64,000 nucleotides of DNA from Bugula neritina (Eukaryota > Bryozoa > Gymnolaemata > Cheilostomatida > Bugulidae). The notes beneath the pieces were generated by a model. The model did not search any database, was not told the origin of the DNA, and saw only the letters and a program-made list of their open reading frames with translations. How positions within the stretch are numbered: position 1 is the first letter of the stretch; each line of letters opens with the position of its first letter. Positions 9,551 through 12,800 of the stretch are shown piece by piece. A program made the position numbers and the translations under genes. The stretch covers positions 9,743,722-9,807,721 of the forward strand of contig OZ037766.1 in NCBI GenBank assembly GCA_964035545.1, read 5' to 3'.

Positions 9551-9892
9551 TTGCATCAATTATAACCACTTTGTGTAAATTGCTACCCACAATAAATTTC
9601 TGGTGGTTTCCATCAGACAAAGACACAGAGAGATGATCACAAACCTCATGAAGGCCATAATTATCATCCCCATTGGTTGCTGACTGTTCAGCTTTTATTA
9701 GCAAAAGTGGTGATGTCAGTCTACCAGCTGGAATGTATGAGTCAGCAGCTACATGCTTCTGGTAGAAAGATAACGCTGCTTTTTCAATATCTTGTCTGTC
9801 ATACTTTTGGCCTCTTTTATTGCGTGTAACATTTGACTAACGGCTTTGAGCTTTTCATCCAATGTCTTACATTCTGTTAGAACTTGACGAGT
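9551..9892 (-). pseudogene. Copy A: degenerate last thioesterase exon
   Basis: This aligns with the last TE exon of copies B and C (the region of DRQDIEKAALSFYQK, IPAGRLTSPLLLIKAE, GLHEVCDHLSV). Relative to B, a one-base deletion near 9817-9832 shifts the frame before most of the exon. The end is also changed: the C-terminal GDNSHKV of B reads GSNLHKV here, and the stop region differs. The two TE exons that precede it in copies B and C are absent, so this is a relic whose first bases now serve only to end the copy A reading frame. Confidence 0.85.
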
Positions 9893-12800
9893 CTATAAAT
9901 TGAAACGGCAAAAAAGGCTATATTCTACAATAAGTATGCATAATGTACAAAGGTTTGCTCTAGATTCAGTATAATGTATGCTGCTCACTTCATCTCCATT
10001 ACATGTTCATAAAATATGAGAGTCAACATGATAAAGCTAACATTGAGCGTTCCTTGTAGTGTACAACGGGAAATGGAGTATATTGTATTATATTTCAGCA
10101 TAGGAATATTATGTAGATTATTAGAAAACTGAGCTTTTTAGTATTTGAGACCAGAAAATTAGCTCAAACAGCATTTATCATGTCAAATTCAATGACAGCT
10201 TTCAACAGTTTTATTATAGTACACTGTAAATTATAGTTTTATAGTAGGCCTATACAAAACACAATGTTTGCACAACACCACGACTTTTGAAATTTCTCAT
10301 AAAAGTGTGAAGTTAGAGGAGATGCAAAACATACCAAGATTGACAGAGTCAGAAGTCTTGCCAGAAGAACTTTCTGGAAGAAATTCAGTGGAAAGGCTAA
10401 CGGAGTCAAACTTGTTAGTCACTGCTTCAACATTAACTGCTGAGCTCAAAGAAGTTATGGTCAAGGCTCTGATTTCTTTCATTGTGAAGTTTAAATCAAA
10501 TTCTCTCTCCAGCACCTGCTTTACTTCTACAGCCATCAGAGAATCCAAACCAAGACTACCTAAGCTACTGTCATTACTGATGGATGAAACATCTTTCACA
10601 CCTGAAAAAACAGACCAAAGATAAGTTTTAACATCTGATCTTATAGTATTGAGCTGACCAACTAGCTATGTCTGAGAACACACACGCACAATGCACACAC
10701 ATATAATTATACAGTATATATAGGCATTCTGGTATGATAATTACCAAAAATCTTAAAAACAGCTTCCACCACATCTCGTTTATTTTCACTGCCTGTTGCA
10801 GACACTTTGTCAGCCACCACATAACTTGAAAGAACTGGAGAGGAAGTTTGAGATAGCATAGTTTCCATAACTGAAAGACAGCTTTTTAGCCTTTGAGGGA
10901 GAGTTCCACCAACTTCAGTGTCATTGCCACCCAAACTCGTGACTACTACACCCACATCGCCGATCGCACCCCATTGGATAGCCAGACCTGAGTTTCAACA
11001 AAGTTTAGCCTCAAATTAATCAAAATAAAAGTTTTGAGCACTGGTAAAACCAATTATAGCTATATTATAGTAAAAAACTAACTGTGGCTATCATAAAAAT
11101 TACCTGGTAAGCCATCTTTAACTCTTTTCTCACACATTCTTTCCATGGCAGTGTTTGCATAACCATAGTTTGATTGACCAGCATTTCCTCTACCACCAGA
11201 TATTGAGGAGAACACGACAAAGCTGTCGAGTGATTCAGAACAGAGTTCTCTTGTTAGACTGTCCAGGTTCAGGGTGCCGGCTACTTTGGGCTCAAATACA
11301 GTTTTGAAAGAAACTTCAGTCTGATTTCCTATGACAGCGTCTTTAAGCACCTATGAAGTAAAAAAGGTCTATGATGATATTTGTAAATACCTTTGAAAGG
11401 ATGGTATACACTTATATAAATTAGAGTATTGCTTATCAAGAAACGAAGATGACTTTTAGGATAGAAATGTTTATTTTGTTCCTGTACCATTGCTAAGTTG
11501 AATAAACCCCCTAATGGAGCCATTGACATGCATTCCATTATCAGATTCTGAGCTTCACCATAACAAGCAGCATTTCTTTTGGATATTTTAACTTCGGCAC
11601 CATTTCTTCTCAGCTGCTCCACAACTTTAGCTTGATATCCTACAAACAAACACTGTAGAGTGTAGTTGCATGAAAGTATGCTTGCTTGATACAATATTGT
11701 TAGATTTGCATTGATACTGCAAAGTTTATACTAATGCATTTGCACTGCAAGTTTGTGCTCAGTACTAACCATTAGTTATACCGGATCTCAATGTAAGGAT
11801 GAGATATTTTGCTCCCCTGGAAACCAACCACTGAGCTAATTCTAAGCCAAACCCTCCGAGACCTCCAGTGATCAGATATGACTTGTATGGTGAGCAGTGG
11901 TATTGAGGGACAGCATCTGTTTGCTGTAGTTCACCATTAGTACTGTCATTTACCTGTAGTGTTGAATATATTCATTAATTTATGTGATGCCGGTCAGTCA
12001 ACACCGCACCAGAAATATTATGAATGGGAAAGTTATGCCTGGTGAAGTTATTTGCAGAAAATAGTAATTTCATTGCTTATTAGAAACAAAATATGCCTAA
12101 GATACATGCTAACAAGTCCAGTTACCTCAAGTAGTACTTTTCCTATATGCTTTCCACTGGCCATGAATCTGAATGCATTTTCTATTTCATTCTTTTTAAA
12201 CTTAGTGTAACTTAGTGGTCTGACAACTCCAGATTCTATTCCTTCAGTAACCAATTCTCTGACTTGTTCCCATTCTTTGTTACCATTGTCAAACAGCGAA
12301 TCCAATAAAATTCCATGGAAACTGGTATTTTTTAGAAACACTGCCATGCCTAAAAAGTTGAAAGAGAAAATAAATAGGAACAACTCTTTATAAGGTTGAG
12401 AATTAATTTTTAAATAGTAGTAGAAGATTATTTACCGAGCGATGAGTTGTTGGCCAAATCAAACTTTCCAATCTCTAAGAACCTTGCATGTTTAGAAAGA
12501 AGTCGAACTGAAGCTTGCAGTTTCTCTTCTGCCAATGAGTTGAGAACAACATTTACTCCTTGCCCTTTGGTTAGTCTGAGTACATCAAACTCAAAAGTTG
12601 CAGATCTTGAGTTTAATATGTGGTCAGACGTTAACCCAGGAAACTGGTCTAACAGGAATTGCTTTTTCTGCTCATTACCAACTGTTGTAAACACCTACAA
12701 TATCACAATACATAGAATAGAAGCAAATGTTTTGCTCTTCTAGGACAGTGTTAAGTGTGCTTTAATACACTTTTGTATACAAAGAGCAGTAAGTCTGTGT

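What the first reader, a model, noticed from the sequence alone, without database searches (positions are those of the whole stretch)
9551..10335. Copy A has lost its thioesterase: deletion of two exons plus a frameshift
Compared with copies B and C, about 1.1 kb between the ACP intron and the last intron is missing in A. This removes the exons with GYSFGA and LDGSH, and the remaining TE exon has a one-base deletion. The predicted mRNA joins the phase-1 ACP exon to a phase-0 exon and stops after eight residues. All upstream domains remain open with intact motifs. A TE-less FAS-like synthase would need another release route, as I recall for sacoglossan EcPKS-type enzymes. Alternatively it is a young pseudogene.
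Basis: partly seen in the sequence, partly recalled or inferred. Interest (0 to 1): 0.85.

Follow-up and report, generated by a model that had tools for sequence, protein, structure and literature searches.

The report
Fatty acid synthase copy without thioesterase
In what is probably a moss animal (bryozoan), one of three side-by-side fatty-acid-synthase genes has lost by deletion the part that cuts the finished product loose, while the rest of the gene still reads intact, so it may be a working synthase that releases its product another way, or a copy that has only just died.

Summary
Copy A (minus strand, ATG at 24646) still encodes KS-MAT-DH-psiKR-ER-KR-ACP: 31 exons, 30 of 30 introns GT-AG, 2,234 codons, no stop. 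About 1.1 kb is deleted between the ACP intron and the last intron. It held the two TE exons with GYSFGA and LDGSH; the remaining TE exon has a one-base deletion. Splicing ACP to it adds eight residues and stops at 9869-9867. B and C keep complete TEs; searches of the assembly found no other TE of this kind and no second copy of A's 3' end. A plain pseudogene is less likely: omega of A is 0.23 (B/C 0.21; omega=1 rejected) and A's own replacements avoid conserved sites. But gene conversion blurs this, the contrast with the TE remnant is weak (p 0.06), and A has four odd changes at conserved sites, notably Ser to Leu in the KR TSRSG motif. New: the closest public relative, Watersipora subatra (Bryozoa), also ends cleanly after the ACP, the only one of 116 scorable relatives to do so. 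By sequence A matches animal FAS better than EcPKS. Best reading: a TE-less synthase of the FAS clade, probably still made; transcription and release route untested.

The parts
10335..24646 (-). Copy A coding region KS-MAT-DH-psi domain-ER-KR-ACP, 31 exons, 2,234 codons without a stop
   Evidence: Own gene finder plus A/B/C comparison, 30 of 30 introns GT-AG; Pfam domains
10335..10601 (-). ACP exon of A (GLDSL phosphopantetheine site, post-ACP linker), ends in phase 1
9893..10334 (-). Intron of A that carries the deletion; homologous to the B/C post-ACP intron except for extra blocks (one of 96 bases); 69-80% identical to B in the three longest blocks
9903..9933 (-). Approximate deletion scar: about 1.1 kb of B-equivalent sequence (B ~30242-31342) missing here
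9566..9892 (-). Remnant of the last TE exon in A: acceptor kept, one-base deletion at 9819/9820, 3' terminus rearranged; 15 replacement and 8 silent A-specific changes in 108 codons compared
9867..9869 (-). Predicted stop codon of copy A after eight residues of the remnant exon (DSSSSNRM)
11789..11791 (-). A-specific Leu codon where B and C have Ser in the KR motif TSRSG (Ser in 99% of relatives in the column, Leu in none)
29860..48803 (-). Copy B, 34 exons, 2,514 aa, with complete TE
29860..31309 (-). TE exons of B (31309-31086, 30662-30402, 30216-29860): GYSFGA, LDGSH, GNHKQF
57149..64000 (-). Copy C, part inside the window (gene runs on to 70785 in L010), 34 exons, 2,514 aa, with complete TE
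57149..58580 (-). TE exons of C (58580-58357, 57950-57690, 57505-57149)

Best explanation
Copy A is one of three tandem animal-type FAS genes and has lost its C-terminal thioesterase through an intron-to-intron deletion (shown in the assembly). Because the new stop lies in the last exon, the message should escape nonsense-mediated decay and give a protein of about 2,242 residues, KS to ACP plus an eight-residue tail (inferred). The KS-to-ACP part has been kept under purifying selection on A's branch (shown as an average over the branch), probably also after the loss (supported, not proven). It would work as a TE-less synthase: chains are built by the core and leave the ACP without a TE of its own, either cut off in trans by the TE of B or C or by another thioesterase, or released by spontaneous cyclisation as proposed for EcPKS1 (inferred; the route cannot be told here). 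A and B share KS and MAT sequences that have departed from the FAS consensus kept by C, so their product may differ from that of C (inferred).
For: No stop or frameshift in 2,234 codons and 30 of 30 introns GT-AG. Pfam domains in order and catalytic motifs of KS, MAT, DH, KR and ACP visible in alignments (motifs recalled). Branch omega of A 0.233 vs 0.206 for B and C, difference not significant (2dlnL 0.3); omega_A = 1 rejected (2dlnL 48.5) on 2,223 codons. Only 4 of A's 36 own replacements in scorable columns fall on columns at least 95% conserved in 168 relatives, against 29.5% expected if unconstrained (591 of 2,002 columns; P 0.008); in the TE remnant 2 of 14 do, where 13 of 101 columns are that conserved. 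A decayed KS fragment of this family next door has two stops in 71 codons. The closest relative, in W. subatra, is also TE-less and ends at the same place.
Against: Gene conversion between copies can keep A's exons intact without selection on A; silent change on A's branch is 58 per 1,498 silent sites (0.039) in the whole core and 23 per 304 (0.076) in the last six core exons, but 8 per 71 (0.113) in the remnant, so the core has been reset more than the remnant. The contrast in replacement:silent changes between remnant (15:8) and core (42:58) is weak (two-sided p 0.063), and against the last six core exons (17:23) p is 0.12. In ER-KR-ACP omega_A is 0.275 against 0.150 for B/C (2dlnL 2.0). A has four changes at columns at least 95% conserved, B none of 21 (p 0.29), including Ser to Leu in KR TSRSG and Phe to Tyr in KS. 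No expression data. B, nearly identical in KS and MAT, may make A redundant.
Confidence: 0.5

Rival explanations
1. Copy A is an early-stage pseudogene: the deletion killed it and too little time has passed, or gene conversion from B and C has reset too much, for stops to accumulate upstream.
For: TE remnant frameshifted; four A-only changes at columns at least 95% conserved in relatives, including KR TSRSG, none in B; strong conversion in the cluster and lower silent divergence of the core than of the remnant; a near-identical KS/MAT partner B is still there; decayed KS fragments lie next door.
Against: omega_A 0.23 and like B/C; no null mutation in 2,234 codons; replacements avoid conserved sites; stop in the last exon; a second bryozoan protein lacks the TE with the frame open.
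Confidence: 0.36
2. Assembly or single-haplotype artefact: the deletion is a mis-join or segregates as one haplotype and is not the state of the species.
For: Only one assembly could be inspected; no reads available.
Against: A's sequence on both sides of the deletion carries A-specific divergence, with its own one-base deletion and terminus; the DNA of A's 3' end matched itself and, more weakly, B and C only; the deleted segment is found only in B and C.
Confidence: 0.08
3. A is a partner or regulatory subunit rather than a synthase in its own right: it dimerises with B through the KS and the TE of B serves the mixed dimer.
For: A and B almost identical through parts of KS and MAT; the animal FAS dimer forms there (recalled).
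Against: No direct evidence; recalled complementation work on FAS mutants places TE and ACP in the same functional group, which would argue against a TE serving the partner's ACP.
Confidence: 0.06

Closest known systems
Animal type I fatty acid synthase (FASN; solved chains 2vz8, 5my0; species pig and mouse recalled)
   Same: Domain order, motifs, best sequence match among solved structures (938 bits over KS-MAT to 5my0); A/B/C/Watersipora clade lies among animal FAS in my 23-row trees
   Different: No thioesterase; Lin et al. 2024 state that all animal FAS have one. KS/MAT of A and B depart from the consensus of relatives at several near-invariant sites
Sacoglossan EcPKS1/EcPKS2 and mollusc AFPK mo-clades 1-3
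   Same: FAS-like architecture that ends after the ACP; release without TE
   Different: Lower match than FAS (822 and 782 bits); A keeps an ER motif, whereas the EcPKS ER is reported inactive; GHSAGE instead of GHSMGE/GHSLGE; A's TE was lost by a deletion still visible within its tandem array
Watersipora subatra fatty acid synthase-like protein (P0002)
   Same: 62% identical over 86% of C, ends 55 residues after the start of the ACP Ser motif with no TE
   Different: KS/MAT of the C (canonical) type by eye; only one such protein seen; branches outside A+B+C, so its TE loss is best read as independent; the record could also be an incomplete gene model

Membership tests
Animal FAS | KS-MAT-DH-psi domain-ER-KR-ACP domain order | tested here: met
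   Pfam on A: KS, MAT, DH_N, FAS_pseudo-KR, ADH_zinc (ER), KR, PP-binding in order
Animal FAS | C-terminal thioesterase | tested here: not met
   TE exons deleted in A; met in B and C
Animal FAS | Phylogenetic placement within animal FAS | tested here: inconclusive
   A, B, C, P0002 clade at 100/99 to 100/100 among animal FAS rows in three regions, but no EcPKS row or PKS outgroup was in the trees
Animal FAS | Makes and releases C16/C18 fatty acid | not testable with these tools
   biochemistry needed
AFPK, EcPKS type (mo-clades 1-3) | No TE (arthropod AFPKs are reported to have one, so this defines only these clades) | tested here: met
AFPK, EcPKS type (mo-clades 1-3) | Sequence closer to EcPKS than to FAS | tested here: not met
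   KS-MAT of A: FAS 938 bits, EcPKS1 822, EcPKS2 782; C: 992, 862, 824
AFPK, EcPKS type (mo-clades 1-3) | Inactive ER (NADPH site lost) | tested here: inconclusive
   Motif HSGSGGVG present in A by eye; binding not tested
Pseudogene | Relaxed constraint, omega near 1, further nulls | tested here: inconclusive
   omega_A 0.23 and no nulls upstream, but conversion and four changes at conserved sites

The most novel reading that the evidence does not exclude
The bryozoan FAS lineage has shed its thioesterase more than once (Watersipora's gene, and copy A here by a deletion that can still be seen), and in this genome the loss fell on a copy whose KS and MAT had already left the FAS consensus and whose KR also carries a Ser-to-Leu change: an animal FAS caught in the act of becoming an AFPK-like, TE-less synthase with its own product and release chemistry, independent of the mollusc AFPKs.
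Probability: 0.32. Interest if true: 0.75.

Novelty: new variant of a known kind. Interest (0 to 1): 0.52.

Why it matters
Lin et al. 2024 (section 8) state that all animal FAS have a TE and that TE-less forms are separate AFPK clades whose release is mostly unknown. A tandem array in which one copy has lost the TE while its sisters keep it gives matched enzymes to test what TE loss does to product length, release and fate, and how FAS turns into PKS-like enzymes in animals.

Tried and rejected
Assembly duplicate or hidden TE: searches of the own genome with TE protein, TE-region DNA and A's 3' DNA found only B, C and A itself. The PF00975 hit on the 12 kb contig C19 shows no similarity to the TE beyond chance, and the only frame of 80 aa or more in the 3.3 kb fetched there is an 85-aa one on the other strand: set aside, identity not established.

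C5 ketosynthase hit (56 bits) as a second FAS: tblastx of 20 kb around it shows only short scattered matches and shared repeats: set aside, identity not established. The acyltransferase search adds one weak hit on C4.

Suspected loss of the catalytic His in the TE of B and C: rejected after alignment, the His lies in GNHKQF.

An 18-base coding indel in A: it lies in a short in-frame intron. My first models of A and B missed 11 residues at the second and third exons, corrected; the codon and column tests (and the column part of 56) used the earlier models. An alternative acceptor giving a TE-tail ending cannot bring back Ser or Asp and is not used.

Protein search for bryozoan fragments or transcripts: no bryozoan name in the 120 rows or the 120 of 445 shown; many rows there are unnamed. 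One search did not return P0002 either, so it does not prove absence of a TE-bearing Watersipora paralogue; TE-only models under about 395 aa were outside the length limits of these searches.

Rows dropped: codon tests used 2,223 of 2,514 columns (291 gapped). The remnant test dropped the frameshifted codon and the unalignable end. Four of 120 relatives without the ACP motif were dropped from the tail count. The conserved-column test used 168 relatives (P0002 plus those of 2,300-2,700 aa among P0003-P0180) and skipped columns under 90% filled. Of 24 rows chosen for the trees 23 were in the alignment.

Full report
What is there. The window lies at C2:9743722-9807721 of an unnamed 216 Mb genome. 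Three tandem minus-strand genes, A, B and C, encode animal-type fatty acid synthases; C runs past the window to 70785. The closest protein is from the bryozoan Watersipora subatra (62% identity over 86%; the next highest identity in the 120 rows shown is 53% over less than half), and A, B, C and Watersipora form a clade with 100/99 to 100/100 support in three regions, so the source is probably a bryozoan. Whole-genome ketosynthase and acyltransferase searches found no other multi-domain synthase; single hits on C5 and C4 were not identified (exon-by-exon searches with capped candidates). Exons below are counted from 0.

The loss. A's ACP exon ends at 10335 in phase 1. B and C continue with an intron and three TE exons; A has most of the intron, a scar near 9903-9933, and the last TE exon from 9892. 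About 1.1 kb of B-equivalent sequence is missing, with the exons for GYSFGA and LDGSH; B and C are 96.7% identical over it. The remnant exon has a one-base deletion at 9819/9820 and an altered terminus. Predicted splicing gives DSSSSNRM and a stop at 9869-9867; retention of the intron gives GMFCISSNFTLL and a stop. Neither makes a TE. B and C have the complete Ser-Asp-His set, the His in GNHKQF. The stop in the spliced form lies in the last exon, so decay of the message is not expected (established rule, inference here).

Is the rest alive? A's KS to ACP is 2,234 codons without a stop over 31 exons, 30 of 30 introns GT-AG, with the Pfam domains in order and the usual catalytic motifs in alignment to solved FAS (by eye, motifs recalled). 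On the three-copy star tree omega is 0.233 for A and 0.206 for B and C; one omega fits as well (2dlnL 0.3) and omega_A = 1 is rejected (2dlnL 48.5). A-specific changes are 42 replacement and 58 silent. Of its 36 replacements in scorable columns 4 hit columns at least 95% conserved among 168 relatives, where 29.5% are expected without constraint (P 0.008); B has 0 of 21 and C 8 of 75. In the TE remnant the changes are 15 replacement and 8 silent in 108 codons, dN/dS about 0.52, and 2 of 14 changed residues are at such columns where 13 of 101 columns are that conserved. So the remnant looks nearly unconstrained and the core does not; but the direct contrast is weak (Fisher two-sided p 0.063 against the whole core; 0.12 against the last six core exons).

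What speaks against it. The copies exchange sequence. In the 5' half, exons 2 and 5 are about 95-96% alike between A and C although both flanking introns are unalignable (identity 0.43-0.55), while exons 3 and 10 are 68% and 78% alike. In A's 3' part, introns 25, 28 and 29 are 65-77% alike to B/C, while introns 22-24, 26 and 27 are 91-100% alike and exons 25-30 are 93-98% alike. Conversion of exons could keep A readable without selection, and silent change on A's branch is indeed lower in the core (0.039 overall, 0.076 in exons 25-30) than in the remnant (0.113). A also has four own changes at columns at least 95% conserved: Ser to Leu in KR TSRSG, Phe to Tyr and Pro to Ala in KS, and Leu to Phe at the start of the ACP (domain placing by eye). 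In ER-KR-ACP omega_A is 0.275 against 0.150 (2dlnL 2.0; omega_A = 1 still rejected, 2dlnL 19.0). The mixed intron divergence also means that the age of the loss is not known.

KS and MAT. A and B share departures from residues almost fixed among relatives that C keeps: Arg to Gln (99%), Thr to Ala before the KS cysteine motif (99%), Thr to Leu (99%) and GHSV to GHSA in MAT (96%) (C positions 195, 211, 316, 637). Between A and B these regions are nearly identical (2 nucleotide differences per 100 codons in one window), and omega on the C branch there is 0.14. A and B are therefore a distinct synthase type, and the TE loss fell on one of them. That the chemistry differs is inference.

Watersipora. 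Its protein ends 55 residues after the start of the ACP Ser motif, with no TE. Of the 120 best relatives 116 had a recognisable ACP motif; 114 run on for 250 residues or more, this one ends cleanly after the ACP, and one (Argopecten) breaks off inside what by eye is a TE. It branches outside A+B+C (97/92 in the divergent KS/MAT part, 100/99 in the others), so its loss is probably separate from A's, unless its model is incomplete; I could not inspect its genome.

Known systems. Torres et al. 2020 (PMC7280274; passages, section 6) describe EcPKS1 and EcPKS2, FAS-like but without TE and with inactive ER, and mention spontaneous release as a pyrone. Lin et al. 2024 (PMC10764717; passages, section 8) state that all animal FAS have a TE, that mollusc AFPK clades 1-3 lack it with release mostly unknown, and that arthropod AFPKs have one. 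A shares the architecture of clades 1-3 but by sequence is closer to FAS (938 bits to 5my0, 822 to EcPKS1, 782 to EcPKS2). My searches of the open library for bryozoan FAS or polyketide genes and for TE-less FAS, seen as listings only, showed no report of this case; most subscription papers are not covered. From memory: FAS cores freed of the TE by trypsin still build long chains and can be served by a separate thioesterase, a precedent for release in trans.

Verdict. The most likely reading is a TE-less synthase still under constraint (0.50), against a recently dead or conversion-preserved pseudogene (0.36). Expression and population data would decide.

Noticed in passing
window 21070-24646 (A), 42361-48803 (B) vs C in L010 (window coordinates 67164-70785): Exon-limited homogenisation: exons 2 and 5 (counted from 0) are about 95-96% alike between A and C while the introns on both sides are unalignable; compatible with conversion through cDNA or with conversion tracts stopped by diverged introns.
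   Followed up: partly
A exons 3-4 and 9-10 (window 22791-23290, 18674-19656) vs C: KS and MAT segments of A and B have departed from the consensus of relatives and are far from C (68-90% exon identity) while most neighbouring exons are 92-99%: a second synthase type beside the canonical one.
   Followed up: partly
window 3890-4102 and 5058-6304, plus strand: Two KS fragments of the same family facing A: the first has two in-frame stops in 71 codons; the second is up to 96% identical to C in one exon, with at least one stop in a coding part and others in what may be introns.
   Followed up: partly
window 54304-56388, plus strand: hAT-type transposase open frame (514 aa piece matches Dimer_Tnp_hAT, E 8e-5) between B and C.
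   Followed up: partly
window 45468-52621 (B) and 21306-28471 (A): A and B are 95.7% alike over a stretch that reaches about 3.8 kb upstream of A's ATG, so A keeps B's putative promoter region.
   Followed up: no
window 7576-7835: Two adjoining tandem arrays of 22-base and 19-base units, near the KS fragments.
   Followed up: no
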